Positions 9,860 through 62,000 of a DNA stretch of 64,000 nt are shown one piece after another (position 1 is the first letter of the stretch; each line of letters begins with the position of its first letter). The notes beneath the pieces are model-generated. The model worked only from the letters and a program-made list of their open reading frames with translations. It did no database searches and was not told the DNA's origin. The position numbers and the translations under genes were made by a program. Source of the DNA: Mesostigma viride (taxonomy: Eukaryota; Streptophyta; Mesostigmatophyceae; Mesostigmatales; Mesostigmataceae); contig RPFO01000034.1 of the NCBI GenBank assembly GCA_009746045.1, positions 3,384,681 through 3,448,680 on the forward strand, given 5' to 3'.

Positions 9860-12800
9860 TTAGTTGGGCGAGGAATGGAAGTGCCTGAGAGTATCATACG
9901 CGGACTGAGAAATCTCGATCACCGTCGGGTGGCGTGCATCGCCAGGGACCCCCTTCTCCGTGCGGTCGGAAATATCCGTCCACTTCTCCAGCTTCTGTGT
10001 CATCATCCCGCCAAAGCTGTCGTCCTTGTTCTTGTCAAAGTAGAGATACGCGCTGCAGGAGGGCGAGGAATGGATAAAAAGCAGAACCCCGGCAAATGCG
10101 CGAAAGGAAGCCCGAAATCTTTTTACCACGTCACACGATCCGGCTGCATCCAAGCTCTATCCAGGCATCAAGCCTCAAGTCTCAAGTCTCAAGAATCAAG
10201 GAGTATGTTTTTTTTTTAAAAAGGAATAATTTGGCGATTTGCACATCGCATCTGGTAAGCATAAGTCTGCGTCCGAGGTTTTGTTCTGTTCCATTTCAGC
10301 CCCAACCCTACAGAGAACCACCTCCCTTCCCCAAAGCCTTGAACATTATCACTCAGGATGCCAAACAGTATAAAATCACGTGGTCACAAAGTAAGACCCT
10401 GGGGCACCGCATGCCAAGACATGCATACATGTTATCCTGCCTGTTACCAACGAAACCACCAATTAGGATAAAGACCATCCATGACCACATGCAAGCCACA
10501 CAAACATCAGCCCCGCACAACGGTTTCTTATATAACTGCGGTGGCACGCACCTGCCGTCCACGACCACGGTGGTCGGCCCGTTGGCCCAGTAGTGGCGGT
10601 CGGTGATCGGTTCGCCCGGCTCGCTCCACGGTCCAAAGGGGCTGCGCGACGTGGACGCGCGGATGTTCTTCTGGAACGGTTTCACACGGTCGTCCTTGAA
10701 GAAGAGCACTGCCATGGCGCGGGGCAAGGGGCAATGGTGGAGGTTGACGATGATGGCGAAGGCAGCCAGTCGATGATTGATTATAGTAAGAGTGATTGCG
10801 ATGGCTACGGAGACGACAATGCATCACAATTCACACTCAGTCCAGCCACAATGATAGTGTTACTTTGTCCCCAGCAGGCACTGGCAAGGGCTCCAAGACC
10901 TTCTAATGAACGAATGTGGATGTGATAAACCGGCAAGGCAGGAACTGTTACCAACGGGACATGTCATCGCACCCACCATAGCTGCCGTCCATCCAGCGCA
11001 TGAGGTGCGGCTCCATGGCCGCGTACCCCGGGTCAAATAACAGCTTGGCATCTTGAAAGCCGTGGAAGTCCTTGGTGGTCGTGTAGTAGATGCTGGCACG
11101 AACAACAATATCGACCATTAAGGACGAGAGGAGCGGTTTCATAAGACGTACTTTCAAGAGACGTTTCGCAACCACAAGACATTCAGAAGGCCGCACAGTT
11201 GCATTACCATCATGAAAACAGTAAACCAGCATGGACGAGCACGGACACAGAATGCAAGACCTACAAGCATGACATCATGTGCCCTTGTGAACCCGTACAT
11301 GCAGCTAACGACGGGGTGACAGGACCGTGAGGGCGCGGTGCAGAGGGGCGACTACAACCCCAAAATACATGACCGGCCCTTCATGAATTGGTATTGACAC
11401 TGCCCTCGTTCGATTCCCGTACCAAAATAGACCGTAGCAAGCATGCTGCATCCTCTAGCGAATCATTGGTGAGCTCGCTACCTGCCCAGGCCAACCACGC
11501 TGGTGGCTCGGTCAACACCCTCACAGAGAACCCATGGGCACTTCCCCGAGAACTCCAATCCCAAGGTTTGCAAGAGCTGCTGACGAGTACGCTGCCAACG
11601 AGTGCATGCAGCCGATGCGCGCATGCAGCCCATGGGTGCGCTGACCCTCCAGGAGGGTAGACGAGATACGACCCCACAAAGGCACTGCGGCATTTCATAG
11701 CCAGCTCAAAGTAAGCGCCTCCATTATAACTCTACGCTGAAACATGGAAAGCATGTTTCGGCCTATGGTTTCGTCTCGATGCGGCATGCAGAGCCTCCTG
11801 GTTCAGATTTTGAAAGCGTGCAGCGCCGCCTCACCGGTGGTCGTACAAGTGGAAGTTGGTTGGGTCGTTGTCCTACTATACAACATGAAAGCTACAACAT
11901 ATCTCGCCGGCTTACCGGTGGTCGTAGAAGTGGAAGTGGGTCGGGTCCGTGTCTTCATTGACAGAGGCCGCAAACACGATCATGGCCTCCTCGTTGTTCA
12001 GCCAGAAGATCTCGGGGCTCCACACGTTGCGCGTCTTGCCCTTCTGCTTGCGACAAGCACCGCCACGGCCACGACCACGCATGCCACACCACCGGCATTA
12101 GCTCAACACCGCCACGCACACCAAATTGCTGGAAGCAACACCGGCCCGCCACAAGCAACGCCGTTGCCATTAGCGCCGATCCTTTGCTGACACATCATGT
12201 GCTGATAACAGCGTGGCATTCCCAGCAGTACGGTCAGCATTGCCCACATGTTTTCTGGCTAGTTGGCCAAAGGGGGGGAGGGGGGGAGGGGCAGTCCAAT
12301 CCAAGGCACAGTGCCATCGAGTTACCCTCTCATATATTTAACAATCCATAGAAGAAAAAGTGCCAATACATATGCCAGGGACTACACCAGCATCTGCATC
12401 TTTTCATGCTTCTTTTGCCCCCCTCCTGTCTCCCGATTGCTGCTCGTGCCCCCCCAACTGGCTCCCCTCCATCAGCTATCCTCTCCATCGTACCTACATC
12501 CCAAGGAAAACGTGCGCCGCAGGCACATGCATGCACACACAGCTACAATGCCATTCAGGCCGGCGCAACACACACACACACACACACACACAGGCTCATG
12601 CTCGCACATGCCAGCTCCTGTACTTCCACACAGACCAGGCCCTTTGTATCCATCCAGCACCTTTGCTCCATACAACACAGACCTACACTGACCAGACCGC
12701 GTGGTTCACACAGCCTAACCCTGTTGCTTGCACACAGGCTATACCCTGTGCTTATCTATGTAGACCCGCCCCAGTGAAAATTTTAGTACCTACTGGATTC

Positions 12801-23300: not shown

Positions 23301-26300
23301 TGAAGGCCGTGTGCCTCGAGGAGTGCAAGACAGACGTATGTGTGGGCGGCGGTATCTGGACCTTGAGGACCTGGCACACACCCCGTTACGACCTAGCCCG
23401 CCATGTCTCCTCCAGATTGTCTCTCTTCCCTCCCTTGGGACGCAAGCATGGGACCCAAGTGTGACGAGTCTCGGGGGGGAGACCTGGCGCCCTCTCTTGA
23501 AAACGAGATTTACCTACAGTAATAGAGCCAAGTAGGGACCATTCTCCTTCTTTACCCAACGTTGCTCTGTGCCGTCGCTGCCGCCATGCTGCTATTCTGG
23601 AGGTGCTGGTCTGATCTGGTAGTAGAGCCCGATGAGGAGGCTTTTGTTTGCACCCTACCAAAACTCTCCTGTTCTGTTATAGCAAGGACTCGCCCAAGTA
23701 GTGAAGCCAGATAGAAACACTTCTCCTTTCTTCTTACCCAAGTAAATCCAACCCTACTTTTCTATTCAAAGCAGGTAGCAGAAAATCGGTGCAGGGATAT
23801 AGGAAGTACAGAGTGCAGCCATTGGTTGGTTGCCTTGCCGATACATACCAAAGTTGGCCAGATTTTCTTCCATTCTGGACAACAATAATAACAAAGGATC
23901 AGCCGTGCGTGCCTGTGTCCGTGCCCTCCTCTCGTCCCCCGCCCCCACCAGTACTGCGACATGGGTCTATGCACAAGCACGGACCAGCTCGTCTGCCTGT
24001 ATGATGACGCATACAACACCGACTATGCGAGTGTGCGCGACCTGCTTGGCATACTGGACCCCTTGGTGAGGAGACATATAGGGCCCCATGGTGGGAACAA
24101 GGAATACGGGACCCCTTGGTGAGGAGACATATAGGGCCCCATGGTGGGAACAAGGAATACGGGACCCCTTGGTGAGGAGACATATAGGGCCCCATGGTGG
24201 GAACAAGGAATACAGGACCCCTTGGTGAGGAGACATATAGGGCCCCATGGTGGGAACAAGGAATACGGGACCCCTTGGTGAGGAGACATATAGGGCCCCA
24301 TGGTGGGAACAAGGAATACGGGACCCCTTGGTGAGAAGGGATGATGTCGGACCTCTTGATCAGAAGCTGGGAAACTGGATCCTTGACTGAAAGTGTCGCT
24401 GAGCCCTTTGAGAATAGGCGAAAGCATCATCACGTGGGGGGGGGGAGGCACAGACACCGCTGCGAGGATGGTGGTTTTGCCGTGGCTCTTGTTGTTCCTG
24501 TTAGAGTGTGGTGGTTACTGTCACAGTTGGCCAGCTGGCTAGCTTTACTGCCTTTTGTTTCACCAGGCAACCTCCTTCATTCGGGCAGGCCACCCCCATG
24601 GTCTTGCAAGGCAACCCCCCTTGGCTTGCCATGCGTAAAGTGCCACCCTGGGGGGTAGACAAGTTGGTGTACATAGCTCGTACATAGATACATATATTGC
24701 CTACTGTACCTCTATAAAATGCACATGTAAACTTCGGCATGAAGAAAGTACAAGCGAGGGCGATGGCATCATGCAGGCAAAACTAATTGCCACGTTTGTG
24801 CATCTGATTGGCAGCAATAGGTTGGCTGGGGGCGAAAGCCCAGAGGTGGCTAGCAGTGGCAATAGGTGAGCGGCAAGCCGTGGCAGGCTATCGGCACACA
24901 TCAAGGCAGATACGCTCATTTTCATTGGCATCGGCTGTCTACCATGCCAGGGCCTGTCTTGGTGCTCTAGTCGCCACCCCTCTGTGCTTGTCTGTACTTT
25001 TGCCGACTGATATCCGTTCCACTCAAGAGGCCGTTTCTGATTATAGATTTGCCTACTTTTGTCTCATGCTCCCCTCCTTGGTCCCGCGTCCAGTACGACG
25101 GCCCCTGCTCGCCCGCGCTGTTTGCGACGACCAGCATCGTCAACAAGTGCTTCCCCACGGTGCCCGACTTCCTGACCGAGATCGTGCAGGACCTGCCCGA
25201 CAACAACAACTACACAAACCCAGTACGTGGCATGTGCTGCGCCTGCTGCGGTGGCGTCACATGTGATAGCGGTGATAGCGGTGATAGCGGTGGCAGCGGT
25301 GACAGCGGTGATGCTGCTAATTCCAGTGAACAGCTCTAGTCTATGATGGCAGTCTAGCGTCTATGCCCCTGACGCACGCGGGGGCAGACACTCATCCTCC
25401 TTGGCAGTGGGCCGGTCGATGCCTATCCCTGGGATGGGGTTGCAAGCAAGCTTGGTGAGTGGCACTAGGCAGCTAGATGCACAATTCCAAGCTCGGCTTG
25501 TCAATGCCCGGGGTGTACAGGGTCTGGCATAGATTCTGCCACGATCTTATGCATTCGTCCGCAAAGCTGAACTGCAGCATACAGTTCTTCTCATACGTCC
25601 CGCTCCTGTTTTCTTCTCACTCAGTCTCCTTTTTCTCTTTCTCTATTTCACTCCGTTACGCAAGTGATGCCCTCGTAAACTCCTGGTTTACGCCCACTAG
25701 TGCAGGTGCACTTTGTGCGCCCAGAGCAGGTGTAGTTTACACCCTACTCCTGCAGGAAGTAGCCCAGACTGTATTAAAAGCCATATGCCCCTTCTCAGGG
25801 ATGTGTGCTACATGTACTCCCAACGGAGACATGTTCCAATTTAATTTAGTTTAGTTTAATACGCCCACTCCCACTAGCAAATAGGGCCAATGTTCTCACA
25901 CGAGCCTGCGTTGGTGAGCCGCTGCCATGCGGTATGCACTTCTGAAATCCAACCACTCCATGGGTGGCTGTCTTGTGAGGCTTCTGACTCCCTTGCATGG
26001 ATGGTTGTAAGACGTTGCTGAAACCAAAACCAGCACCACCGCTTGGCCTACTCCCCGCCCCCCCCCCCTTTCCCCATCTCCAACTTCCGTCCCCTCTCTC
26101 TCCCCCCTCCCTTCCTCCTCATTTCCCCCCATTCCCTCGCCCTCCCCCCATCTTCCCAACCGCAGAACAGCACGCTGGGCCAGGCTGTGCGCTACAAGAC
26201 GGCGGTCGCCACGCTCAAGGACGCGTTCACAAAGGAGCGCATGCAGCGCTACATGGCGGACCTGTACAAGGGGTGGATGATCATCGTGGGGGCGGGCCTG

Positions 26301-29300
26301 ATCGGCTCCATGATCATCTCCCTCCTCTACATGGGAGCGCTGCGCTTCTTTGCAGGCCTGCTCTGCTGGCTGGTCCTCATCGGCATCAACCTACTGTTCA
26401 TCATGCTGACCATCTTCTGTTACATGAAGGGAGGCACGATAAAGCACAACCAGCTGGCCGACGAGTACGGTGTGGTGCGTGCAACGCACACGGTGGCTTC
26501 ATGAACCTGTCAAGCCATTGTGGCAATTGTGGCTTTTTTTTCCCACATGGACCTCCGACCAAGGGTTACCATTCAGGTACTAGCCTTGCCAAGTATCATT
26601 CCCAAATCGTAACCCACAGCCCAACCCATGATACAAGTGCGCAACCCCCCCACCCCGCCCGCTCCCGCTTCCCACTTCTCTTCTTATTCAAGCTCGTGTC
26701 TTTCCGTGACCCATTGATCACCCATGTTCTGCCCACAACCCTCCCCCCACTGCTTCTATCTTCTTCCCTGCTATCTAAATCTCCCTGGTATTGTTTTCCC
26801 TGCTGTCTTCTACCTTCTTCCCTGCTATCTAAATCTCCCTGGTATTGTTTTCCCTGCTGTCTTCTATCATATTCCCTCTCCCCTTTCTCCTTGCCCTGCG
26901 TGCAGACACTGCCCAGTGCGTTTGACCCCTCGGTGGAGGACCGCGACACGTTCGTAAAGCTGGCGTACGCGATGACGGCGTTCTCTGTGCTGCTGCTGCT
27001 GCTGACCATTGCGATTGCGTCGCGCGTCCGCGTGGCCGTGGGGGTCATCAAGGTGGCGTCGCAGGTACGAGACGTTAGCATCCCATAATAGTAGGTGGCG
27101 TCGCAGGTACGCGACGTTAGCATCCCATTATAGTAGGTGGCGTCGCAGGTACGCGACGTTAGCATCCCATTATAGTAGGTGGCGTCGCAGGTACGCGACG
27201 TTAGCATCCCATAATAGTAGGTGGCGTCGCAGGTACGCGACCTTAGCATCCCATAATAGAATGTGGCGTCGCAGGTACGCGACGTTAGCATCCCATAATA
27301 GTAGGTGGCGTCGCAGGTACGCGACGTTAGCAACACATATATGTAGGTGGGGTCGCAGGTACGCGACGTTAGCATCCCATAATAATAGGTGGCGTCGCCA
27401 GTATGCTACAGTAGCAACACATATAAGTAGGTGGGGTCGCAGGTATGCTACTGTAGCAACACATATGGCAGTCTCATGTATAGCAGTATATAAATAAAGC
27501 CACAGCAGGTACATTAAGTACCGTCTACGCAGGCGATGGTCCGATAGCTGGCGGTGCACTGTGGATTCAGCAGGCACGCGGTCATACGGCGGTGGATCTT
27601 TCCCGTGAACAAGCCCCCCGTGAGCAAGGGCAGTGCTTGACCCCGCAGGTCCGCTACAACTACCTTGGATGTAGAAGATATAGATGCAGCAGGCGCGCAT
27701 TATGTGCAGCACCATATCTCGCAGGTGCGTGGTTGGCCCAAGCCCAGTACAACGTCCATGAAAACGAATGGACATGGACGGTGTACTTAATCTTGAACTT
27801 TCTTTCCGCTCAACTGCCGGATGCATTTCTATGGCTAAGCAGTTTTGGTCTGGCCATTGCACATCGCAGCATGTGACAGCATTGGCAGTAAACCGGTTTA
27901 CCACCAGTGCTTTCATGTGTCCCTCCCTTTGGCATCGCCCAAGCACCCAGCCACCCATGTGCCCCTCTCGCGTTATAATGCCCACTAAGCTGCTTTGCAT
28001 CCATCTCCCTTTCTCTACCAGCCATCTACACCTACAGCGTTTTTGTTGTGCACGTGGAAGTCTGCGGGTAGGTCCGAATGCTGGCATCTCTGTGTGCCTA
28101 CCCGTGGCAGTTTCTCCTAGAGCTCGCGATTTCAAGAGGATGGCTGCTTGTTGACAAGCCTTGCAATCTATGTGTTATCTACATTACCCCTCTGCGTCAG
28201 GCCTCGTGATCTTGGAGCCATCCTCTGACCCATCGCCCCAGTGTAAGGGCGTTTGACCGCTTGTTACCACCAGCGCTCGTCACGTTCTCTTCTTCTGTTG
28301 ATCACCTGCAGGCGGTGGGCTCCATGCCCCAGATCCTCTTCCTCCCCCTCTTCCCCTTTGGCCTGAACGTGCTGCTCGTGCTCTACTGGGTCTTCATCGG
28401 CGCGCTGCTGTACAGCGCAGGAGATGTAAGTCAACACTCGTGCTGCCTGTGCAAGTGGGGGGATGTGTACGCCAGCAGAAGTGCGACAAGGGGGCATGCT
28501 CCAGCAGTAGCACGGAAAGGGGCGTAAGCTAGCAGCAGCATTAAACTGGCCGTAGCATGAGGGGGGGAGGGGGGGGGCATGAGCCAGCAGCAGCACGAGC
28601 CAGCGCACACATGGTTACTCAGCTCTTTATTTTCTGTTTATTGTCTCTTAACCCATGGGCTTACATTTCCATTGGGCTTGTAGCAAAAAACTGGATTGTG
28701 TCTTGATAGTGTCTTCAGTACCTGCGGACTTTGTTTGCAGCTCTCTCTTCTTTTCGTGTTGAGCATGCCCTTCCCAAGCTCGTACGCTGAGATGTAAATC
28801 CCATGCACGGCACGTGTTTGCTGCCAACGTCTCCTTTTGTTGCCAGACTGCTCGTGGCTGCCCCTTTTGTGTCAAACCATCATTGTCTTATTTATTTCCA
28901 TGCCCTATTACACACACCCTGTCGTCCTTCCCTCGACCCCCATCACGGGCACACGTGCGCAGGTGGTCAAGGACAAAGAGCTGGAGAGCTACGAGCTGGT
29001 CTGGCGCAACGAGCTGCGCTACATGTTCCTGTACCACGTGTTTGGCCTGCTGTGGTCACACCAGTTCATCGTGGGGTTGAGCCACACCATCACTGCGGGC
29101 GCTGTCGCATCCTACTACTGGTGCCGGTGAGAGCAACCCCCCACCCCACCCCCCCTCTTCTTCTTCTTCTTCTCCTCCTCCTCCTCCTCCTCCTCCTCCT
29201 CCTCCTCCTCCTCCTCCTCCTCCTCCTCCTCCTCCTCCTCCTCCTCCTCCTCCTCCTCCTCCTCCTCCTCCTCCTCCTCCTCCTCCTCCTCCTCCTCCTC

Positions 29301-32208: not shown

Positions 32209-32506
32209 GTTGTCCAGATGCAGATGTTGCTTTGATTGCATGGAGACGAATGCATGCATCTTTGACTAGTGTGGATTTGGCCATGGTGTAACAAAGACGT
32301 GTCCAATGACCATGAACGCTGCCAAAACAAGAATCGTCAATTGTTTAGTATGTGATAATTTGGTTGCAACATCTCACAATTCCAAGCAGTTTATCCTGAA
32401 ACTAGCAGAGGTGCACACTTTGGTCACAATGAACATAGATCGATCCGTTTTTTCCGCGTACCGGCACTCGCAGCAGCATTTATAAAGCAGCATACTGTAG
32501 TCTGGC
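32209..32506. other. CTL 3' flank
   Basis: Non-coding. ATGGTGTAACAAAG at about 32283 contains TGTAA and is the likely poly(A) signal of the CTL gene if the organism is a green alga. Confidence 0.4.
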
Positions 32507-32945
32507 CGGCCCCCAGCGGCTTGGCCAGCCAGGGCGGCACATTCTGACCTGGCCTGGCCCCGAGGACATTCCCAAAAGGGTAGGGAAACCTGTCACGAAC
32601 TACGTTCAGATGTTGCTGGACGACCTAGTGGTCCCAGCCCAGTTTGAGCACCGCATCCACTCTCTCTCCCGTCTTTGGACTGCCATGCAGGACAAGACGC
32701 GGTGGAAGAAGATTGTCAAGGCGCACACGCCCGACCCTGTGGGCAAGCCACCTCCCCCCAAGCGGAGGAGGCGTTTTGATGAGTAGTGTAGTTAGGATTT
32801 TCTAGATAGCTTAGAGTTAGGATAGTTCGATCACGCGGCTTCCTCCACCCCATCCATCATGGAATATGTGCTACATGACCTCCCCACGGACGCATGTTAT
32901 AATTTAATTTAATTTAATTTAATTTAATTTAATTTAATTTAATTG
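32507..32945 (+). mobile_element. LINE 3' end (family A), 5'-truncated copy 2
   Basis: An uninterrupted frame from about 32507 to a TAG near 32786 encodes the LINE C-terminus: HILTWPGPEDIPKRVGKP, NYVQMLLDDLVVPAQF, HSLSRLWTAMQDKTRW and a basic end KRRRRFDE. A 3' UTR follows with CTCCCCACGGACGCATG and about eight copies of AATTT/TTTAA. It is better preserved than 3962-4697 and shows the uninterrupted sequence at that copy's 193-bp insertion point. Confidence 0.85.
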
Positions 32946-34527: not shown

Positions 34528-34872
34528 GAATGTATAACAGTAGTGTAGATTAGTCAGTCTTAGCCTAGCTAGCATATTGCACCCACAGGGGATGCCCCGG
34601 ATCGTTTAGTTGGATGGGTCCGATTGAGCACCCTGTGGCATCATTGCCTGCAGGCATGTGGCGTGAGGGAAGGGGGGCGTCTCTGGCACCCTACCCATTG
34701 TGCACACTCAAGGATTAAAAGCACTTAGGTGCTCCGTGACTCGATCCCCAACGGGACCACGTGTTTAATTCATATCCATCATCCTGGACAACTCAAAAAC
34801 GCGGATAAGATAACGGCAGGCTTGAGCTAACATGGATCCGGATTCTCCATATTTCTGGCCGGCCTGCGCTGA
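34528..34872. mobile_element. LINE-type 3' UTR/tail and copy of the dispersed repeat
   Basis: 34528-34770 continues from the ORF1 relic into a 3' UTR-like stretch ending GTGCTCCGTGACTCGATCCC then CAACGGGACCACGTG, a variant of the shared retroelement tail. Its 90-base upstream part also matches the minus strand of 8551-8640. From 34777 the sequence matches the minus strand of the 193-bp insertion at 4276-4468 (ACGCGGATAAGATAACGGCA), without the 32-bp insertion present there. Confidence 0.6.
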
Positions 34873-35094
34873 CCTACCTACCTACCTACCTACCTACCTA
34901 CCTACCTACCTACCTACCTACCTACCTACCTACCTACCTACCTACCTACCTACCTACCTACCTACCTACCTACCTACCTACCTACCTACCTACCTACCTA
35001 CCTACCTACCTACCTACCTACCTACCTACCTACCTACCTACCTACCTACCTACCTACCTACCTACCTACCTACCTACCTACCTACCTACCTACC
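34873..35094. repeat. TACC microsatellite
   Basis: About 55 uninterrupted copies of CTAC/TACC. Confidence 0.98.
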
Positions 35095-36540
35095 TGTACC
35101 TACCGGGTTGCGGACGTACCCCACATGTCGGACCACCCACTATATTACCATATTTCGTCACATGCACGTGTCTTCCCTAGCTGCATGCATACTTGGGGGT
35201 CCGGGTTGTGGCTAGCTAAGATGGCCATACGCCATTGCTCTAGTTGCAGATCATCTGCCCCAAGATGAGGGATTAGTCCAAGAGGCACTGGTTATTGTAT
35301 ATAAGTTGCAGCTTACAGTGCTCAACATTTTTCTTACAGACCCCAAATGAGCCACATTTGTTGATTGAATAATAAAATAATGGAAAAAGAATGGAATATT
35401 TTCAAGCTGACTACCCAACCCCCAAAAGGTCCCCTCGGGGCACCAGTAAATGATCAATCACATTGATCAATCCACTAAACATAGCAAACATGCAAGCAAC
35501 ATCCAAGCAAAATTAATGGCAAAGCTGTACATTCAAAAGCATCGCAGAGAAAGCACTAGTAGCTCCATAGAATATCATATAGTACTGGTGGGGTATAGCA
35601 GCATGGCTGCCGACCCCTTTACACGCCCTTCTCCACGTCCACAACTTGTCTTGATCCCCATAAGCACATCGGAAGCCACTCATAGAATGTCATGCTGATA
35701 TACAAGGTAAAACATGGTTGCAACAGCTGCCATGCTCTCCCTCAGTGGCTGGCCCGCAAAAGCCTGGTCAGACTGCTTGTGCTCTTCTGGGACTGAGCTC
35801 ACATGGCAGAACCGGCATGGCCGCGCAGTGCACGCAGCTCACCATTTTGAGCTCTCACGACATTGTCTCTGTGGTGAGGCAAGCCTGCTCAAGAGAAGAA
35901 CCTGGCACCCCTTACAAGGGGCAAACCACCAGATGCACAATGGCCCTGAGAACATGGTGAGCCCGTTTGATCTCACCAAGACACACACAACCTCCAGTTA
36001 TGCCACCGATCCAGTGTCAATTTTTCCATGATATCTTGCGGGTCGGATAGAGGATGCACGCCTGTATAAAACAAGTCAAAGACCGCATGTTTTCTCTGCA
36101 ACCCTTCCCTTGCCAAGCGATCCCATCTTTCTCCTTTCCTTCTTTGCCGTTCAAGTCCCCTTTCTCTCCCTGTTGCCCGGCCCCTCTTGCTGTCTCTGCC
36201 ACAAAGAAAGCCCCTCGCCCCTCTTCACAGGCGATCCTAGACAACCAGGCAATGACTGCAACCACGACCGCCATAACACACCCATGCCTCTAGCCGGCCC
36301 TGTCACCCCACATCCACAACAGCCGGCCGGTAAAATACACAAACCCCAACGTTCGATTCTTACGCCACCCCAATATTCCGTCGAAGGGAATGCCACCCTC
36401 GTAGCAAAGGAATCCTGAGAGGTCGACGCCCTAGACGGGTTCCATCATGGGCACGCCAACCCACGCGCGTGCTCCCCCTCCAAAGGCCGCGGGGAGCAGA
36501 AGGATGCGGGGGGTCGATCAAGGGTCGCGGAACGGAGGGT
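35095..36540. other. Convergent intergenic region, no gene recognised
   Basis: The space between the retroelement cluster and the 3' end of the protease gene. Several short ORFs exist, none with recognisable content. On the minus strand a TGTAA lies near 35911, about 770 bases beyond the protease stop, too far to assign with confidence. Confidence 0.3.
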
Positions 36541-39700: not shown

Positions 39701-42700
39701 ACCCGGAAAACCACCCCCTGGAACCCCCCCCCTCCCCTGCGGCATTCCCTGCGTACCTGCACACGTCGGCCGCGACATCGCAGAGCATGCCGTCCCTGAA
39801 GCATGGGTCCTCACTGCTCGAGTAGCAGAGCCCCGTGGACACCTTGCAGCGCCGGTAGTTGGCGCAGACCGCACCTGTAGGGTTACAGTCCGCGTCCGCC
39901 GCGCAGGGTTGCACGCAGCGGTTGGCGGCATAGTCGCACACGACGCCCGAGGAGCAGGGAGGGGCCACATTCTGGAGGCAAACGCCGGCAGGGGAGCACT
40001 GAGCGATGTTATTGCAGAGGATGCCGTCCAGGTCCGGGCAGTGGGCGTCCAGCGTGCAGGCGACGCACGTGCGCTGCGCCCCGCAGAAAGGTGCCGAGGG
40101 GGAGCTGCGGACACGTGGGTGGTGGGTTGGTCGTGGTGGGTTGTTGGGTTGGGGCGGCAATGGGGGACCGGGGACAGGGTGGGTTGGGGCGAGGACAAGC
40201 AGGGTTGGTTGGAGCGAGAAGGGAGGGCGTGGTGGTGGTGGGGAGGGATGAGGCCAGGGGGGGGCGGGGTGATAAAAAGGGCAGGGAACCAGGTGGCTTG
40301 GGGCGAGAGAGGAGGGGGAGGATGATAGGGTCGGACGGGGCAGGGTGAGGGAGGAGACGGCGGGAAATAGACAGCGAAAACAAGGGATGTCAGGAAAGTT
40401 GCCTTGACGATAGGGGGAAGAAATGGCAAGCTCCGCTCGGTGCTAGGTTAGGAGAAGGCGCGATGACAGGGCCGTGGCATTGTGGATCGACAGCAGGGGC
40501 AGTAGGTTGCCAAAGAACTTGTTGCGTCCAAGGTGATAGGTCGACTTGTTAGTTGAGTGCATCAGTGGGTAGCAGACAAGAGTGTGGCTTAAACACGTGC
40601 ACGTGTAGGCGAAACTCGTGGAGCTGCGAGTGGCATGACGTGATAAGAGATCGGTAGCCGGGGCTGAGAAGAGCCAAGAATGCAAATGGCGACTATCAAT
40701 TCATGCCTCTAATGTTGCAACCATCCGTGTAAAGCACAAAGCAATGCCGCGCGTGCAGCGACCGCCCGCCATCATAAGGTGTGTATGCTGGCGTACCTGC
40801 AGCTACAGCATGCTGGCTTACCTGCAGCTACAGCATGCCATAAGAATGGAGAAATGCTGGCGTATCTACAGCCATGTCTGCACTTGCATACACTCGTGGT
40901 TTGCATTTGTGAAGTCGCTGTCCCCACAGGAAACGTGTGCTCGCCTATCGCTACTATCCGATTGTGCTGGCGTACCTACGGTCACCGTGTTTGCAGTAGC
41001 ATTCTCATAGGGTGCATACCTGCAGTCGCTGTTCTTGAGGCAGCCCACGCATGTGTCCGATGCTTCGTCGCATGCCGGGGTGGAGCCGCCACATGGCGGA
41101 GTGCCGCTTGTGCATGTGCCGCTGGACGTGCATATCTGATTCCAGGCAACAGCCGCAGAGAGCGGGGAGAAGGGACCAAACGGAACGATGACGCATTTAT
41201 TAACTACCAAACACACACAAAAAAAACCTAACAGCTTTGAAAACAAAAAACTTACAGCAGTGCATAGCCTTAGTGACAAGTAAGCCTTGCAACGAACCCG
41301 CCATTCCATGTGCAAGTATAAGAGGCCAAGCTTGCCAGGCGACGAGTGGGTATTAAAATTAAAGAGTGCGTATTCCCTAACGACTACTCCCTACCCCCTG
41401 CCATATCATCAGTGCACTCGTACCTCCTGCCCGTCACAGAAGAGCCCGTTGCTGCAGCCAGCATTATCAACGCACTGCCGGCACTCAAACAGCGTCGGGT
41501 GGCAGCGCAACTTGCCGTCCGCCCGCCCTGCGCAGTGGCTGTCCTCGCTGCACTGGTGGCAGGCGCCGGTGGATGGGTTGCAGTAGGGCAGAGCCGTGCC
41601 CTCACAGGGGTTTCCGGACGACACGCAGGTGCCAGCAGAACAGCTCTGGGTGCCTGGGGGGGGGGGGGGGGAGCAGGGGGTGTGATAAGCAGAGACGACA
41701 ACCCACAGGCAATTAAGGTAGCGGCGCAAAGGACATGAAGGTCCTGTACCAGCACAAATGTAACAGTAGTAGCATACTGTAGGAGACAACCAGCGCAGTG
41801 TCTAGTGGTGAGCACCACTGCTGCGATTGCTAATAGAAGCATATTGTAGGATATTGTAGGATATTGTAGGCTACTGTAGGATAGTAGGATATTGTAGGAT
41901 AGTAGGATATTGTAGGATAGTAGGATATTGTAGGCTACTGTAGGATAGTAGGACATTGTAGGATAGTAGGCTACTGTAGGATAGTAGGATATTGTAGGAT
42001 AGTAGGATATTGTAGGCTAGAATCTGGTGAAGAAAGCTCGGCCCATGAAAGCTCGCTTCATGGAGGCTCGTTCAGATGACGCATGTCCCCCGCATGTTGT
42101 GAATAGAAGACCAAACAGAGTAAAATAGGCGTGAAGTGGGAACCGAGCAGCTGCACACAATGATTCATGCATACGGCAGACACGCGCCGAAGACTGAACA
42201 ATCAGCAGAACATGGGAGAACAAGCAGCCGCAACTCTTGCGCGATGCTAAACAATATGGTAGAATCGCCGAAAGAGACTTTTTCCCTGGCCAGGTTGTTT
42301 GACAGGGTTTCACACATAGAAATGCGACTACCAAACAACAGTTGGGCCGTACCAGCGCAGGACTACCAAACAACAGAGGGCCATACCAGCGCAGAGGCCT
42401 TGCGACGGGCAGTCGGCGACCGTGACACAATCGACGCACACGCGCGCGGTCAGGTCGCACAGCGGGCGGCCCGTCCCTGCGCAGTCGGCCGTGGCCATGC
42501 ACTGCACGCACACGTCACGCTGCTCGTCGCACACCGGGTGGCTGGTGCCGGCACACTGCACCGCGCCGGCCTTGCACTGGCCCGCGTCACACACCTCGAT
42601 GCCTGGGGGGGGGGGGAAGGCCGGAGGTTGGCGCGGTTGGGGCGGGAGGGTGGTGGGGTATAGCAGGAACGTGAGCGGACGAAGCACTCGAAGAGAGTCA

Positions 42701-45700
42701 GGGGGAGGGAGGGACCGCAAGAAAGAATTAGGTAGCATCTGGGTGGGTAAGTGGGTGGTGGTTTGGGTGGGTGGGTGCAAGGGATAAAAGGAGGGGGTAG
42801 GGAATGAATTTTCGACTACCATGGGGTGGCAATGGGGGTAGAGGGTAGCAGCTATTTCCCAATTTTGATTCCTTGATTACATGCCTCGTCTGGGAGGCCA
42901 CAGCGCATCTTACAGGAAGGGGGACATCCCCCCCTAAAATCGCACAGAGCGCGCTCCCTCTTCTAGCCCAGCGCGCTGCCCGGCGCCAGCCCAAGTGGAA
43001 AATGGCTGAGTGCGCTCCGTCAGCAAAAGGGCTGCGCCGGGTCAGAAAACAGGTTCTGTGGGAGTGTGCCACGAGCTTCGTTGCTTGTGAGACCCGTGGC
43101 AATATTAACTAGCATTTCTGACACCTGGCATTCTAAGACGCATCTCTGAGTGGCAGCTCTTAGTATAAGCACTCGGTTGCAGCAGTGCTTCAACGGGGTT
43201 CATCATGTTGTACAATGACCATGATTCGGTTTCCGGTGCGAGGGAAGTCCATTATTGTACGTCCTGCTTACAGAGCAGGGTCAAAGCTGACTACTGAACG
43301 CGCCACGTGTCAGCTATGCCCTGAAACGAACCCAACCTATACACGTGGCACATGTTGGTACACTCCTCGACTCTGCAATATCAAACGCCGGACCAAGCTA
43401 GCGGGAGCACCAGAGCGTAATCCCCTCCGTAAAACCAGGTGCCGGACCGGCAGGAAGAGTGCACTCATGAAACTTTTCTTTGGTGCCGCTCTCAAACATT
43501 TCCACCAGAGCGCGCTCCATCGCCAAAATTTTGGCGCCGGATCCCTTTTTCCCGGTTTTGGGAGCTCGCTCGACGTCCCAAGGTGCCACGCCGGATCAGT
43601 GAGGGAGTGTGCTGTTTTGGCGAGATTAATTAATCAATAAGCACGTGACTGCTGTTTTGGCTGGATGTCCCCCCTCCTGTTAAGAATTACGTATTATACT
43701 ACTATCATTTCCCACAGTAGTCGGCAGGAATGGTAAGCAAACAAACAGCAAGGCCAGAGCCCAGCGCGCATCCTTGTTGCTGCTGAAGAGCAATCTTCCG
43801 TTGGAAGACCGCAATCCCTCACCATTTCATAACAGTCATCCTCACACCTGCAGAACAGTCGTTCACAAAATGTCGAAGTCGCACACGAGCAGATACTCCC
43901 CATTTGGCACATCGCAACCCCTCACCATTGCACATCAGCAACCCTCACCGTTGCAACCATTGAATGCGACCGTAATGAGACAACCATTGAATGCGACCGT
44001 AATGAGACAATATTTAAAAAATGAGCCATGCTTACCGTTGCAGAAGAGGCCGTCCGAGCAGTGGCTGCTGCTGGTGCACGCCACACACGTGTTGGTGACA
44101 GTGTTGCAGTAGTTGCGACCATCGCTGCGGCCGCTGCAGTCACTGTCCGCGCTGCATTCGAAGCACTTGCGCATCGCCTCGCTGCACTGGCTGCTGCCGC
44201 AGGGGGTGGCGTTCAGTGCGGGTACGCAGTCACCGTTCGAACCGCACCGCTCCGCGCCTGCAGGGAGAGGTAGCAATGTGGGAAGAGAGTGTGTGTTATG
44301 GGGGGGGGGGGTAGACGAGCAGAAGACGCGTGGAATGGGGGAGGGGCGGATAAGGGTTTGGTGGGGGAGGCAAGTGAGGAACAGTAACCATGTGTGATTC
44401 AAAAAATGCACTTTTTGCAGAGCATATAGCAGCTATCGGCATCGCAGCCATGCCCATTCTTAATCCCCAGTCAACATTCCAGTACTCAATTCTCTGTTTC
44501 TCTCTGTTTCGATCTCCCACGCGACTGCCCCGTGCATGTTTCATGGCCCCTGCCCGCTCCCTTCTCCCTTCAAAGCATGTCACACATGTTGCATCTATTT
44601 CTCAGTTGCAGTTGCCAGCAACGTCGCACACAAGGGCAGAAGAACAGCTCTCGTCGCTACAGAAGATGCCATCGAAGCATGACAACGCTTGTTCAACAAA
44701 CTACCTAAACGTATCTAAACAAAGGACGTCCAGTGGCATGGCTCGTGCCCTGAGTGCCCTTCCTCATCAAAACAGAAGACACCTTACGAGGCTACGGGCA
44801 CAACTGCGGCTCGCGAGGGAAGGGACACCCTCGCCATCACACAACAGTGCCCCTCATACGAGGGACAGGAGCGAATCCGTGCCGTTACAGAATACACCGC
44901 ACGAGCACAAGCAAGCTCACGAGGGGGGGGAAACCCCTCATGGTTGCAGAACGGCTGCACAATTAGTGCTCATCGCGCAATTATCAAGTCTCACAGCACA
45001 GTCAATTCTCACAGACCCCACGAGCAGACCCTCACCGTTGCAGAAGACGCCGTCGGAGCACTGGCTGTCCTCGGTACAGGCCGGGTAGGCGACCGTGGAC
45101 GAGAAGCACATGTAGCCGACCACCTCCACTTTGTGCGTGCGCTCCGTGTCAAACAGCTGCACGCGTGGTACAGGAGAGGGGCATGAGCACCGATGCGAGC
45201 ACCCACATGATTAGAAACAGGTCACAGAACTCAAGGCCTTGAGCGTGCGCTCCGTGCCAAACAGCTGCGTGGAGCAGAAAAACTCTCTAGACACAGAATA
45301 AATAACAGGACGTAGAAAAAGGAAACAATAAAACAGAGGAGCACCCCGTGCGAAACAGTTGTACACAGTAAAAAAACAAACCAACATGGAATGTATGCAC
45401 GGAACGTTTACGGGGGGGGTCTATCAGCTGCACGCAACAAACGAGGCACGCTGCACACATGGGGCTGCCCATATGATGCAGAGGGAACGGATATGGCCAC
45501 CCAGGGGGGAACGGCATGCAAACAGGGGGAAAGGTGCCGGTGGGGCATGGGAGTGCCAAGTGTCCGAGGCCAGTCCTTGATAACCATAACTAACCAAACA
45601 GATAACAATAACTAACACATCTCAGGCGCAGTATCCGGTGCGAATGCACCTTGGCCGCCCACAATGCACCTGGGCCACCACCCAAGGAGGGAGACATCGC

Positions 45701-51700: not shown

Positions 51701-54700
51701 GACGCCAAGACACACGCTCTCTTCCATTCCACCTCATCCACACCGAAACACAGGTCATGATCTGCTGATAGATACGAGCACATATATAGATATATCTGCC
51801 AGCAAACAGACGCCGTCTTCCGTCTCACCTCATCCACCGTGAGACGTGGGTTGACCTGCCACACGACGGCGGCGGCAGCCGCGGCGTGCGGGGACGCGGC
51901 GCTCGTTCCGTAGAAGCGGGGCCAAGGGAGGCCGGAGCCGAAGAAGGACGTGACGCATCCATCGGGGGCGGCGAAGCGGGGCTGCTGGCGGTTGCTGCGG
52001 AGACGAGATGGCAATCGACGAGGAGAACGAGGGATGGAAGGGAGCAAGGGTGATTAGGCCGGAGGGGAACATGGCCAAGTCGGCCGTTGTGCCAAGGAGA
52101 GCAAGGGCGAATAGGCCTGAGGGGAGAGCGAACATGGGCGGTTGGGCCAGAGGGGGATGTGCGTGCATGGGTTTAGCAGACAGTCCATGGACTTGTGCCT
52201 CCCATTGTGCCCCCCACAGAAAAGGTGAAGCACGTTAGTAGTTAAACACCATTAATTCCCAACACAAACTAGTGCTGCAGTCCGAGGCGAGAGAGGGACG
52301 CGTGACAGCCTACGCAAACAACTGCGGCCACGACCGCAATCCAGACACAAGCAGGCGATCCTTTGGTAGTGAGCAGCCGCCTTTGTCTGCCTCATCAGAA
52401 GGAGAGTACGCAAAGACCCAGGCATCGACATCAGCTGCGCTACACTCCGGCAACCATCATGCATGTGACGGGAACGGCCCAAGCCACAAACGTATTTTCA
52501 GGTGACAACATCAACCCATCGGTTTTGCATTGTCGATCCAACTCACATCGGCGTCGCCAGGCGCGTGCCGTCGGTCGCGAACAAGATGGGCGTGTTGCCC
52601 ACCGAGGAGAAGGCCTCCATCTCAGCGGGTGTCTTACCAAAGGGGGGCGTCTTGGAGTAGAGTGCCGCGCCCACCCCCACCCCCCCCGCTGAGTTGGCGT
52701 GGCCGGTGCACGTGCTGCTGTCGGTGGCCCACTCCATCACCTTGATCTGGTAGTTGTAGCCCACCCACTTGATGACCGTCGGGCGTGGCCCCGCGTAGTG
52801 CTCGATGGTGATGTTATAGCGACCGCCGGTCGCGTAGTTCACCGAGGAGCTCGTGGGCAGGCAGAGGTACTCAAACGGGTCATTGTTCACGTTCACGGAG
52901 ACCCCTTGCGCCACGAGCGCGCCTGTGTAGAAGTTGTAGGCGTAAATGTCCAGGTCAGTGGCCGCACCACCGCGCTGGGTGACCGATTTCCTGCGAGAGG
53001 GACGGAGGTGTAGGGAAAGGGGTGTTGGAGAGAAGGACCCACGGAAAGCGTGGGAGAAGTCACATCAGCAGTCACTCAAATGGCCAAATGAAGAAAGGAC
53101 CACAAGGAGGGAAAATGGACACAGACAACTAGTAACCACATAGGCGGCCCGAGGCTCTGGGGCATTCATACATTGGAATGGGCAAACAGCAACGTTTTAC
53201 TTCGTCTCCCCCAAATTGCCATTGAACTTTCCTGCATATCACGAATCCCCTGCATTAGAAAAGAGGGCATGGATATGATCTTGGAGGCATTTGAAAATTT
53301 GAAAGACTGTAGGCCACACACATGTGTGCTATAGCAACGTCACCCCATCATCTCGCAACGTGCACGAATGTGCACCAAACTGCGCTTCCGTCCGTGCACT
53401 TGTCTACCAAGCATTGTACCAACCAAGTGCATTACCGCCGAGGTGTGTGCAGCATGCAATGGCAGCTATTGGCGCTGCCCCAGCCCTAGGCACCATGCGG
53501 AGGAGTGGTACGTTGCTCCTTGCTTACAACACACTCCCAAAAGACAAGCCATAGAGAACGAGTGACGACTAACAAGAAATACCATCGAGGCTCAACTGCA
53601 ACCGCTACACTCTCCCCCTCCAAGTCCTTCCACCCCCCCCCGCCCCCCTCCCCCTCCTACCCCTATCCCCACCAGGAGCGCATACACGCACCAGCCAGCA
53701 CAAGGCGCAGCGGCAACACCAGCAATACCAACAGGAAAGTTGCAAACACCCACCCGATGTCATACCGATGCCGCATGAGGCAGCAAAACGGTGGGAACAA
53801 AGACAACGAGAAGGAAACATGCATCATATGGAAAACAACAACTTTGTTACAACATTGTCCCAATCCAACCCCACACCCACCAGGGGTCGTCCCACTGCAG
53901 CACAAGGCAGCCCCCGCTGGGGAACTGCATGTACATGCTGGTGGCCACGCCATCGCCCGGGTCATAGTCATGCAGCTCGCCGTGCTCCTTGAACGACCCC
54001 GACGGACGGTACGGCGCCGAGTAGGACAGGCGCGCGAGGTTGCCCGCCGACGAAAAGTAGGCCACGCCCAGGCTGTGCACAAAGGTGACCGCCTGCGCGA
54101 TGGGGCCGTCCATGAAGAAGGGCTCGCTCCTGTGTTGGGTGGGATACCACAGCACGGGGGGAGAGCAAGACGGAGGGAGAGTGATGAGCAAGTAACACAC
54201 GTGTTTGCCTCTGCGGTGCATGGCACGGCAGAGAAACATTTAGCTCGAGTGGGTAAGAAAGGGGGACGGCTCGCCGTGATAGACGCCGACAATGATGAGA
54301 AGGCCCACAACTTCTGGAAATGTGACGCCAGCGTGAGCGCGAAGAAACACGGTAATTTTCACGTGCGGGGGTGTGACAACCTGTTGGAGAAAAGGACTTG
54401 TGTAAGCCAGAGTGAGGGGGTAGGAACCACAGGGACTAGGGAGGAAAGGGATGCCAGCACTAGGGAGTGAGCAAGAAACACGAGGTGAGCAGGCGTCATC
54501 ACAAGCGTGTTACCGACCACAAGGATGCAGCAGACTGCCAGCACAAGGGAGTGGGCACAAAGCTTGACCACGCGATCTGCCGGGCTGGAACATGATGCCA
54601 AGGCAAACAGGACTGCAAAAAACCTCAAGGGCGGTGAATGCCCGGGTACTGCCCCTTCGACACTGGACACAGATTGCCGACCCCTAGCGCACACTACACG

Positions 54701-57848: not shown

Positions 57849-57963
57849 TTTATGTTCGAAGGGATAGGGGCGGACTAGCCAGAATCCTGCGGCCAGTTAC
57901 TGCCGGGCTTGCCGGCCAAACTACCATTTAATTGCCGACGACGGAGTGAGGCAGGATTTTTCC

Positions 57964-58245
57964 TTAATTGTGGATGCCCCACGCCTCGACGTCGACAAGT
58001 ACGTTACCTCTGGCAAGCCATATCACTGGCAAGCCGCCACGGGCAAGCCTGCTGACAGCTAGGAGCATGCGAGTCACGGCAGCAGTTTCTTGAGCAGCGA
58101 TGGCTATAGATGATGGCCCGCCGAATTTATCGTTAGGGGCGAAAATTGTCTCAAGGTGCGTTGAATCGCCGTGCATTATAACACTTACCTCGGCATTGTC
58201 TACGTAACGCCCAACGGTGGCGACGCATGCCTGCATGTGCCTCAT
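57964..58245 (-). CDS. Hypothetical ORF, 93 codons
   Basis: A minus-strand frame starting MRHMQACVATVGRYVDNAEV. Its mixed composition looks more protein-like than most chance frames here, but I recognise no family. It overlaps the opposite-strand candidate that follows, so at most one of them is likely to be real. Confidence 0.2.
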   Translation of the reverse strand: MRHMQACVATVGRYVDNAEVSVIMHGDSTHLETIFAPNDKFGGPSSIAIAAQETAAVTRMLLAVSRLARGGLPVIWLARGNVLVDVEAWGIHN

Positions 58246-58946: not shown

Positions 58947-59077
58947 TTCCGGTGTGGTGGGCGTGGCGATGAGTGTTAGCAAGTGCATCTCGGCGTGTCA
59001 CCACAAGCATGTCGTACTCACCCCACCCCACCCTGCACATACCGCTCTGTGCACCTGCGCGCGATTCCCCTGACCAG

Positions 59078-62000
59078 ATGCACCTGTACGACCCCCCGAT
59101 ATTTGGCCGCTGGCACACGATGGAGGACTTCACCGATTTCGTGGAGGTTGGCCGAGGCATGCTATCGGTTGTCTGGTCGGCCAAGTGCTTGACCACGGGG
59201 GCCCCATACGTGGTCAAGAAGTACAACCGCTGCCAGCTCAAGAACGACACGCTCAAGCACAATGTGCACCGCGAGATCAGCCTGCTCATGTCCCTCAGGT
59301 AAGCGACCGCGCCGTGACCTGCCGAGCGTGGACGTGAGAGGAAGATGTGAAACCATATCAAAAGGTATATGCACCTGCTCATGTCCCTCAGGTAAGCGAC
59401 CGCGCCGTGACCTGCCGAGTGTGGACGTGAGAGGAAGATGTGAAACCATATCAAGAGGTATATGCGCCTGCTCATATCCCTCAGGAGGCGAGCGTGGCCA
59501 TTTCGGCGCCACAAGGCAGCCACTCCTCCCAATAAAGACTGTTGATAATGAAATCTTATGTCCCTCAGGCAAACTGCCAGGATGGAGCAGGGGGGAAATT
59601 CACACCGTGACCTGCAGGAGGATGGGGTAATGGTTGTTCCGCCCACCCAGTAATTAGAAACGCGACGAATATTCTTGAGAATCACATGCATCAGTTGATG
59701 CACCGGGCTGGTCCGTGGAGCTCAACCTGCTGAGTGTGTTCCTCCTAGCTGCTGCCCGGGTTGTTGCCATTGTCCAGGGTGTGGGGGGGGCCTTGGTTTA
59801 GGGGGGCGCTACCTTTCCGGGGGGGTGGAACGGGTGGCACGTTGCAACCATTGTGGATGGGTTAAGTGACCGATATTGGGTGAATGCAAGGGCAGTTATT
59901 TGGTTGATTAACAATTTAATTGTGCCAGTAGAAAGATTTAATAGTTCTCGTGAACCCATGATTGTTTATTCTTCTTCTTCTTGTGTTTTGACCATTTCAA
60001 GAGTTCACTCTTATGCATATATCAGGAATGCAGGCCGTTCTTCAAATATGCAGTTCCTCGCTGGCACCCAGCCGCCTTGGCCCAAGGAGACAAGCTCAGG
60101 CCTGTCCTCCCGTCTCTCCCCCCGCTTCCCCTTGCCCCCACCTGCAGGGACATCCCCTCTGTCTGCCAGCTGTACGGCACCTTCGCTGACGACCGTGGCA
60201 TCTACCTGGTGCTCGAGTACTGCGCTGGCGGCGACCTGCTGGACGTGCGCAACGACTTTGATGGGCAGCTGTCGGAGAAGCTGCTGGTCCCTCTCGTGCT
60301 GATGCCGCTGCTGAAGTGTCTCGCGGAGATTCACCGCCGCAGCATCATGCACCGCGGTGGGTGGTTGGCGATAGCATTATGCACGGGATTGTGGGTGGGT
60401 GGGTGATTGCTGCATCATGCACCGAAGTGGGTGGCCGTTGCTGCGAAGACATTTGAGACAGGCATCCATTGAGGTGTGCTGATAGATCTCTGGCCCTTTG
60501 TGGTCTCTATCCCTATCAAAACCGTGTCCCTATGTGAATCCGGTCTCTATCTAACCCTGCCATTGTGTGGCGGATCACAACAGTTCTACGTCCATCGCTG
60601 AGCTTGGCAACCACCCAAATGCAGCCCTCCCACCCCAACCCTCCCGTTTTACTCTTCGTGGGACCTTATTTCCTGCGGCTCCCCGCCCCCTTGACCCCCA
60701 CCCCCCCACACACACCTCTCCCCAGACATGAAGCCCGAGTCTATCTTTGTTGACACGTAACGCATCATCTCTTCCTCTTTGTGGGGCCTTACTCCTTGCT
60801 CCCTTGCTTCCCTGCCCCCTTGGCGCCCCCCCCCTCCCCAGACGTTAAGCCCGAAAACATCTTTGTGGACGCGGGAGGCATCATCCGGCTGGGAGATTTT
60901 GGCCTCGCGCTTAACTGGTCCGAGGAGGAGGCGGTGCACCGCGTTGGCACGCTTGACTACATGGCGCCCGGTACGGCTGCTAGCACTTTCTTGTTGATAT
61001 CTTTGCCCTGTCACAGCAAACAAAAGCACCCCTTTTTTTGTCTGCATGCAGCAGTGCAAACACCCCGCGATATTGTTACGTGTCAAACGCTGTGCCCGGA
61101 TGTTAGTAAATCGTTTCCTTCACTTCCACAACCTGGCGCATTGGCACTCATGACCTGCCCCCCACCCCCCACCCCATCCACCCCCTGCGCGCCACCTGTC
61201 ACCACCAGAGGTGCTCACGCGCGCGGACGGCCAATCGCAGCACCCCACCGTGTCCTGCAGCCTGCACAAGCGCTCGTACAACTCCAAGGTCGACACATGG
61301 GCGGTCGGCGTGCTTGCGTACGAGATGCTGACAGGGACGCCTCCCTTTGAGGTCGACTCCCAGTCGTCCACCTGCGCGCTCATCCTGTGGACGGATCCGC
61401 CCGTGTCCGGCGTGTGGCCACGCCAGCTGTCCCTGGAAGCCATCTCCTTCATCAAGCAAGCGCTCCACAAGGTCCCCGAGGACCGTCCGGGCGCGGAGGA
61501 GCTGCTCCGCCACCCGTGGGTGGTCAAGCACTGCCCCGAGCTGCTCTGGTTGCCGCCCTTGGCCACCGCCACGACCAAGTCCCACACAGGGGGGGGCACT
61601 GTGGGAAGGCGGTCGTCGGAGCTTCCCGCGGTCGCCGCCCGAGGTGTGGCGGCCGTTGCGGCACCCCACGAGGCACCCGTGCACGCGCCCTCGCGCTGTG
61701 CCACGCCGCCCTCTTCCTCCATGCCGGTGGTGAGCGTGCCAGTGTCGATTCCCCCCGTCCGCACCACCCCTTCCAAGAGCAAGCCCTCGGGGGCCAAGTC
61801 ACTCTCCAACGGGGTAACGTCAACAACCGATGGGGTCAACGCGACACCAAATGGGGCCAACTCGGCGACCCATGGCGTCATGTCGCCACCCAGCCTTGCC
61901 AAGGCCCCCGTGTTCTCCCCGACACCGACGCATGTTCCAGTGGCCAGCGTGCAGCAGAAATCCCCGTCTACATCATCAGCGCGGCCCCTGCGTCCGAGTG

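What the first reader, a model, noticed from the sequence alone, without database searches (positions are those of the whole stretch)
11822..60435. Tandem duplications anchored on 5' splice sites in at least ten introns of four unrelated genes
Once exons are assembled, at least ten of 42 introns in the GH43, CTL, protease and kinase genes carry tandem copies of a segment that includes the last 8-25 exon bases plus that exon's own donor. Arrays range from fresh (CTL introns 6 and 9, kinase intron 1) through moderately diverged (GH43 intron 4, kinase intron 2, protease introns 4 and 13) to decayed (protease introns 11, 12 and 15). Periods differ (34, 42, 53, 81, 93, about 140 bp) and sequences are unrelated, so this is a process, not one repeat family. 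Other minisatellites here lack the junction. The tandem-duplication model of intron gain (duplication of an AG|GT-containing segment) predicts related products; recurrent slippage or break repair at 5' splice sites, perhaps linked to R-loops, is an alternative. The outcome is introns with many competing donors.
Basis: partly seen in the sequence, partly recalled or inferred. Interest (0 to 1): 0.88.

Follow-up and report, generated by a model that had tools for sequence, protein, structure and literature searches.

The report
Tandem repeats straddling algal splice donors
In the green alga Mesostigma viride many introns carry tandem copies of the end of the preceding exon with its splice donor; in the genes sampled this looks like ordinary intronic tandem duplication that is tolerated at the start of introns but largely removed at their ends, rather than a process aimed at the donor.

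Summary
The window is from Mesostigma viride, a streptophyte alga. Published protein models fix 30 introns exactly (CTL 11, protease 19); a paralog gives 3 more, and I placed 7 donors by reading. Protease intron 2 is an unlisted extra.

A wider set has 149 introns in 20 genes, 110 outside the window. Outside, fresh arrays begin in the last 70 exon bases about as often per kb as inside introns (9 seen, 8.3 expected; 0.8 to 2.4-fold across settings). None ends in the first 70 bases of the next exon (9.4 expected, P=8e-5). Older diverged copies occur at both ends: 34 donors and 15 acceptors of 149. So the donor is not shown to be a strong target. The firmer result is the asymmetry.

Best explanation: frequent local tandem duplication in introns, tolerated at donors because the exon-proximal donor still gives normal mRNA, and filtered at acceptors. 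The signature of intron gain by AGGT duplication is absent. No RNA was available.

The parts
24051..24335 (+). CTL intron 6: 53-bp unit x5.4, starts in the last 15-18 exon bases; donor at 24066
   Evidence: TRF; junction from P0001; one search score 225.5
27051..27445 (+). CTL intron 9: 42-bp unit x9.4, starts in the last 14 exon bases; donor at 27065; 8 copies of CAGGTACG
   Evidence: TRF; junction from P0001
11824..11953 (-). GH43 intron 4: two copies (11953-11905 and 11872-11824), 81 bp apart, 38 exon nt + donor; donor at 11915
   Evidence: 85.7% over 49 nt
59281..59485 (+). Kinase intron 1: 93-bp unit x2.2, 18 exon nt; donor at 59299
   Evidence: TRF
60339..60434 (+). Kinase intron 2: donor-spanning copy at lag 70, 18 exon nt; donor at 60357
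   Evidence: score 18.5
60715..60885 (+). Kinase intron 2: acceptor-spanning copy at lag 116 (11 intron + 44 exon nt); exon starts 60842
   Evidence: score 25
53746..53911 (-).
   Evidence: score 14
51710..51837 (-). Protease intron 4: donor-spanning copy at lag 96; donor at 51828; a further copy of the region lies at 51704-51591
   Evidence: score 17
42326..42394 (-). Protease intron 13: 34-bp unit x2.0, 8 exon nt; donor at 42386
   Evidence: TRF; score 14.5
44935..45045 (-). Protease intron 11: weak copy at lag 94; donor at 45035; borderline
   Evidence: score 12
45131..45271 (-). Protease intron 10: acceptor-spanning copy at lag 108 (26 exon nt); exon starts 45156

Best explanation
Mesostigma introns undergo frequent local head-to-tail duplication, mostly in units of about 25 to 170 bp, and some grow into minisatellites. 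A duplication that begins in the last ~70 bases of an exon and runs through the donor is nearly neutral: the first, exon-proximal donor still yields the normal mRNA and all extra copies fall into the intron. A duplication that runs through the acceptor places a second acceptor plus exon start upstream; if that one is used the mRNA gains extra sequence, so such duplications are mostly removed and none in the sample has grown into a fresh array. What looks like anchoring on donors is mainly what survives this filter. Shown: copies, rates and the donor/acceptor asymmetry in this sample. Inferred: the selective filter and its splicing basis. Borrowed from other organisms: fill-in repair of staggered breaks or slippage as the source.
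For: Outside the window (110 introns, loci not chosen for repeats): array starts in the last 70 exon nt 9 seen vs 8.3 expected from the intron-internal density; array ends in the first 70 nt of the next exon 0 vs 9.4 expected, P=8e-5. The acceptor deficit holds at all 24 combinations of TRF setting and subset tried (P 0.019 or lower). Old copies outside: donors 29/111, acceptors 13/111, McNemar P=0.005; internal points 18-19%. Swapped-intron null 2/1180 and 1/1180. Copies lie in tandem next to their junction, often several. In CTL9 both Mesvir1 models, P0001 and P0053 (384/384 identical), join at the first donor; P0053 takes an acceptor 38 nt upstream (exon start 28274 instead of 28312), which shifts the frame and ends the protein early. 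Staggered breaks give small tandem duplications in mouse and human cells (PMC8355091, passages).
Against: The old-copy excess at donors over internal points is significant (29 vs 19.2 expected, P=0.002). A conserved exon copy should decay half as fast and could explain it (1-exp(-2x) predicts 0.31 against 0.24 seen in 118 introns), but this is a model, not a measurement. Placing each array uniformly gives 9 vs 4.7 expected at donors outside the window (P=0.05) and 1 vs 4.7 at acceptors (P=0.05, the one being a doubtful intron later dropped). For periods of at least 20 and score 80, donors without C1690 show 7 vs 2.9 (P=0.03). In the window alone the acceptor deficit is not significant (0, P=0.11), and without C1690 and the window the donor/acceptor difference in old copies is not (9 vs 4 of 73, P=0.27). 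12 of 15 acceptor copies keep AG, which is odd if upstream acceptors are harmful. Exon parts never exceed 67 nt (donor) or 44 nt (acceptor), unlike uniform placement (KS P=2e-4, 3e-4); I ascribe this to selection without proof. Genes differ strongly (C1690 20/38, C413 0/23).
Confidence: 0.58

Rival explanations
1. The 5' splice site region is a true mutational hotspot for tandem duplication (for example R-loops, pausing or nicks at donors).
For: TRF arrays spanning donors under uniform placement: 13 vs 5.6 expected in all 150 introns, P=0.005, but this includes the window that was picked for them; outside 9 vs 4.7, P=0.05. Outside the window and without C1690, period at least 20 and score 80: 7 vs 2.9, P=0.03. 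Exon parts cluster at 13-67 nt.
Against: Outside the window at the main setting array-start density is 9 vs 8.3 expected, and 9 vs 11.7 at the loosest. Old copies are also frequent across acceptors. Most arrays start inside introns (101 vs 13 in exon ends).
Confidence: 0.22
2. The arrays are traces of intron gain: tandem duplication of an exonic AGGT segment created these introns (Rogers model).
For: Gene C1690 is richer in introns than its paralog C1679 (2 introns over residues 1141-2178 of P0241; 12 accepted ones in C1690 over the same residues). Downstream exons of dynein introns start with GT in 49 of 106 cases vs 5 of 44 in window genes plus CTL2.
Against: The model predicts intron head = downstream exon head and intron tail = upstream exon tail; mean identity at those positions is 0.24-0.27 in four genes, i.e. 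chance. Copies of the upstream exon sit on the donor side and many are followed by donor-like sequence, so they look younger than the intron. Exon-start GT is not associated with copies inside C1690 (P=1).
Confidence: 0.07
3. The repeats are mobile elements (introner-like) inserted near donors.
For: Introners can recruit a donor from a target-site duplication (PMC9860276, passages).
Against: The nine units tested match only their own intron among the window and 54 loci, one 30-nt match apart, and copies contain the neighbouring exon. A whole-genome look for the 42-bp unit was asked for but did not complete.
Confidence: 0.03
4. The extra donor or acceptor copies are kept because they act in splicing regulation (decoys or alternative isoforms).
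For: 25/34 donor copies keep GT and 12/15 acceptor copies keep AG.
Against: Copies are diverged and differ in number, period and presence from intron to intron; no RNA evidence either way.
Confidence: 0.1

Closest known systems
Tandem genomic duplication model of intron gain (Rogers 1989; Hellsten 2011; both seen only as cited in PMC4974935 and PMC3443670)
   Same: Short tandem duplication overlapping splice-site sequence; mRNA can stay unchanged
   Different: Here the intron already exists and its own donor or acceptor side is copied; the AGGT signature is absent
Fission yeast SPOG_01682 and SOCG_00815 (PMC3629103, passages)
   Same: Introns made of several 24-nt tandem copies that reach into exon sequence
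   Different: There the repeats were read as creating the intron in an exon
Potato RdRp intron (PMC4974935, passages)
   Same: A tandem duplication crossing an intron-exon boundary
   Different: It crossed the acceptor and made an additional intron; here acceptor crossings are depleted and I saw no sign of an extra intron
Small tandem duplications from fill-in repair of staggered breaks (PMC8355091, passages; plant work recalled, not read)
   Same: Head-to-tail copies of tens of bp
   Different: Shown in mouse and human cells; no break was observed here, and lags of 100-130 bp exceed the 43-50 bp overhangs used there
Intronic minisatellites
   Same: Head-to-tail arrays, with 2 to 17 copies in the donor-spanning ones
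   Different: Some begin inside the coding exon and include the donor

Membership tests
[quoted passage not shown]
   Mean identity 0.24-0.27 at positions 7-26 in CTL, PRO, C1690, C413
[quoted passage not shown]
   CTL2 and C1679 lack several introns of CTL1 and C1690, but gain and loss cannot be told apart
Introner elements | Similar copies dispersed in many genes | tested here: inconclusive
   None among window and 54 loci for nine units; whole-genome search unanswered
Introner elements | Target-site duplication or terminal repeats | not tested
   -
Intronic minisatellites | Head-to-tail array, period 10 or more | tested here: met
   117 non-overlapping TRF arrays in 150 introns, median period 27
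Intronic minisatellites | Copy number varies between strains | not testable with these tools
   One assembly only
Break-repair small tandem duplication | Adjacent direct copies of local sequence | tested here: met
Break-repair small tandem duplication | Microhomology or strand signature at the duplication ends | not tested
   Not attempted; many copies are diverged

The most novel reading that the evidence does not exclude
Mesostigma introns keep growing from their donors. Tandem duplication starting in exon ends is about twice as frequent as inside introns for units of 20 bp or more, each donor can become a ladder of near-identical donors, and the absence of fresh acceptor arrays records in DNA a rule that the upstream copy of a splice site wins. 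Intron sequence would then be rebuilt continually from exon-derived units.
Probability: 0.22. Interest if true: 0.75.

Novelty: new variant of a known kind. Interest (0 to 1): 0.5.

Why it matters
Junction-crossing duplications are natural experiments on which of two identical splice sites a cell uses. If donors tolerate them and acceptors do not, the pattern measures splice-site competition in living genomes without any assay, and any genome with a long-read assembly and RNA can be used. It also warns that repeats beginning at donors need not mean that donors are fragile, because selection alone could place them there.

Tried and rejected
Rejected: 5'-only anchoring (acceptor copies exist; interior density about equal at the main setting). 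Disfavoured: AGGT intron gain. Rejected hits: CTL11 (CTC microsatellite, 3 exon nt) and the PRO1 hit (1 exon nt). The ungapped scan was replaced by a gapped exon-copy test with swapped-intron and internal-point controls because low-complexity hits passed it (DHCa3, DHCa10).

Rows dropped: dynein introns under 100 nt, with non-GT donors, or backed by fewer than 3 references (of 4, 6 or 7 used); in C1690 the four introns backed by only 2 of 4 references (three at the 5' end and one inside; 42 became 38); two unreliable N-terminal introns of CTL2 (7 predicted, 5 kept); and xC1624a intron 3 (140 nt, 3 of 7 references, inside a 68-bp array), removed after its acceptor hit was seen, so 150 became 149. 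With it kept the counts are 34 and 16 of 150, McNemar P=0.0039, and one acceptor-side array. GH43 intron 4 has no known acceptor and is only.

Led nowhere: in the listings of nine literature searches I saw no report of donor-spanning arrays of this kind in existing introns: 5 of 5 listed; 20 of 1,527; 4 of 4; 13 of 13; 7 of 7; 1 of 1; 12 of 84; 15 of 28; 12 of 24. The library holds open-licence PMC papers only.
Full report
Source. The CTL protein of the window matches two Mesostigma viride (Mesvir1) models, P0001 and P0053, at 100% over the matched part. The held genome has 439.9 Mb in 2243 contigs, close to the 441.8 Mb of the published M. viride assembly, whose mean intron is 1142 bp with repeats in 30.1% of intron space (PMC6947507, abstract and passages). 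That paper's main text has no hit for 'splic', and none of the passages I saw mentions repeats at splice junctions.

Junctions. A spliced protein-to-DNA aligner that I wrote gives 11 CTL introns (507 of 507 residues identical) and 19 protease introns (1747 of 1748), plus 3 CTL introns from a paralog. I placed 7 GH43 and kinase donors and 6 acceptors by reading. So 40 donors and 39 complete introns were tested in the window. Whether RNA supports the Mesvir1 models was not checked.

The observation. Donor-spanning repeats with a score of 11 or more occur at 10 of 40 donors: CTL6, CTL9, GH43-4, KIN1, KIN2, PRO2, PRO4 and PRO13 clearly, PRO11 and PRO1 weakly. The fresh arrays are as described: 53 bp x5.4, 42 bp x9.4 and 93 bp x2.2. 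A stricter gapped test keeps 5 of 39 donors and 3 of 39 acceptors in the window, against 9% of internal points.

A wider sample. From the same genome I took 60 kb of one dynein gene (C1690), 40 kb each of two more (C1324, C413), 10 kb of a fourth (C1690b), 10 kb of the CTL paralog, and the dynein loci already fetched. They were chosen for exon content and not for repeats. Dynein introns were accepted if at least 3 reference proteins agreed on both ends; CTL2 used its own published protein. With the window this gives 150 introns in 20 genes, 149 after one was dropped.

What the wider sample shows. In C1690 both intron ends carry copies. In one 378-nt intron a 46-nt copy of the upstream exon plus donor ends 102 nt in, and a 32-nt copy of the downstream exon with its acceptor starts 110 nt from the end. 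Several introns hold two to six copies. Copies at donors: 34 of 150; at acceptors: 16 of 150; both 7; McNemar P=0.0039; intron-internal points 15.5 and 16.3%. Outside the window: 29 and 13 of 111, P=0.005. Without C1690 and without the window: 9 and 4 of 73, P=0.27, internal 10 to 12%. A bootstrap over genes of the donor-minus-acceptor count gives 3 to 44. Donor and acceptor tests against other introns' sequences gave 2 and 1 of 1180.

Is the donor a target? The measure with the fewest assumptions is the density of array starts. In 110 introns outside the window arrays start in the last 70 exon bases at 1.24/kb and inside introns at 1.15/kb (9 seen, 8.3 expected, P=0.45); in the window 4 vs 19 inside (ratio 2.2, P=0.11). 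Stricter settings raise the outside ratio: period at least 20, score 80 gives 9 vs 5.2 (P=0.08), and without C1690 7 vs 2.9 (P=0.03); looser ones lower it, 9 vs 11.7. A second expectation, placing each array uniformly in its intron, gives 9 vs 4.7 outside (P=0.05) and 13 vs 5.6 in all 150 (P=0.005). So a twofold excess is possible and a large one is not supported. Old copies exceed the internal rate (29 vs 19.2 expected, P=0.002), but one partner there is a conserved exon, which should keep copies recognisable longer; if it doubles their lifetime the expectation rises to 0.31 against 0.24 observed. This correction is a model.

Is the acceptor protected? No fresh array ends in the first 70 bases of a downstream exon: 0 vs 9.4 expected outside the window (P=8e-5), 0 vs 11.6 in all, and 0 in the window alone (P=0.11), with P from 0.019 to 1e-7 across the 24 combinations of setting and subset. 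This excludes one doubtful intron dropped after inspection; with it there is one such array, and uniform placement then gives 1 vs 4.7 outside (P=0.05). Old acceptor copies are fewer than the internal rate (11 vs 19.7 expected in the 106 outside introns long enough for the control, P=0.004).

Reach into exons. Donor copies include 13 to 67 exon bases and acceptor copies 21 to 44, although up to 150 were searched; uniform placement is rejected for both (KS P=2e-4, n=24, and 3e-4, n=10). I read this as selection against copies that bring along more exon-like context, but a duplication mechanism centred on junctions would look similar.

How it works. Inferred: small tandem duplications arise throughout introns. 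If one crosses the donor, the first donor restores the normal transcript. If one crosses the acceptor, the new upstream acceptor can be chosen and adds sequence to the mRNA. The CTL gene gives an example of what an upstream acceptor does: model P0053 joins the same first donor of intron 9 to an acceptor 38 nt upstream of the usual one (exon start 28274 instead of 28312) and is truncated. Against this, 12 of 15 acceptor copies still have AG and 25 of 34 donor copies GT at the projected place, so loss of the decoy dinucleotide is not how most are silenced. The origin of the duplications is not shown; fill-in of staggered breaks makes such duplications in mouse and human cells (PMC8355091, passages), and similar work in plants is recalled only.

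Comparison with the known. The intron-gain model by AGGT duplication requires the intron head to resemble the downstream exon and its tail the upstream exon; both are at chance. The fission yeast and potato cases (PMC3629103, PMC4974935, passages) are the nearest published ones that I saw. In the listings I saw no report of donor-spanning arrays with absent acceptor arrays; these cover open-licence papers only and several listings were partial.

Limits. No RNA was available. Most outside introns belong to one family, the dyneins, and one gene supplies 20 of the 34 donor cases. The window was chosen because of these repeats, so only the outside set is an unbiased test. Significance values treat introns as independent and several settings were tried.

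Noticed in passing
G000:C1690:5703001-5763000 (L051, L039-L042, L052) against L009: A dynein heavy chain gene with about 40 introns, many with exon-end copies at both ends, while its paralog C1679 (identical to P0241 over the stretch held) has only 2 introns over residues 1141-2178. Possible burst of intron gain or loss.
   Followed up: partly
dynein loci: Downstream exons of accepted dynein introns start with GT in 49 of 106 cases, against 5 of 44 in window genes plus CTL2, a proto-splice-site pattern.
   Followed up: no
window 56628-36650, minus strand: The 1751-residue subtilase (P0121) has, apart from Mesostigma itself, listed hits (best 120 of 547) whose named organisms are bacteria, yet it carries at least 19 introns: a candidate for horizontal transfer followed by intron gain.
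   Followed up: no
window 27065-28311: Two Mesvir1 models of CTL differ at intron 9 by an acceptor 38 nt upstream, which truncates the protein (P0053).
   Followed up: partly
window 29172-29447: About 86 CTC units followed by a C-rich run begin 45 bases after the donor of CTL intron 11.
   Followed up: no
window 34872-35095: A perfect ACCT microsatellite of 56 units.
   Followed up: no
window 4038-4376 and 32439-32786; 5594-6415 minus: Two ORFs sharing LAGPQRLGQPGRHILTWPGP, and a reverse-transcriptase-like ORF (label by eye), perhaps parts of mobile elements.
   Followed up: no
window 60715-60885: The duplicated acceptor side of kinase intron 2 carries a decayed copy of the exon start encoding DVKPENIFVD.
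   Followed up: partly
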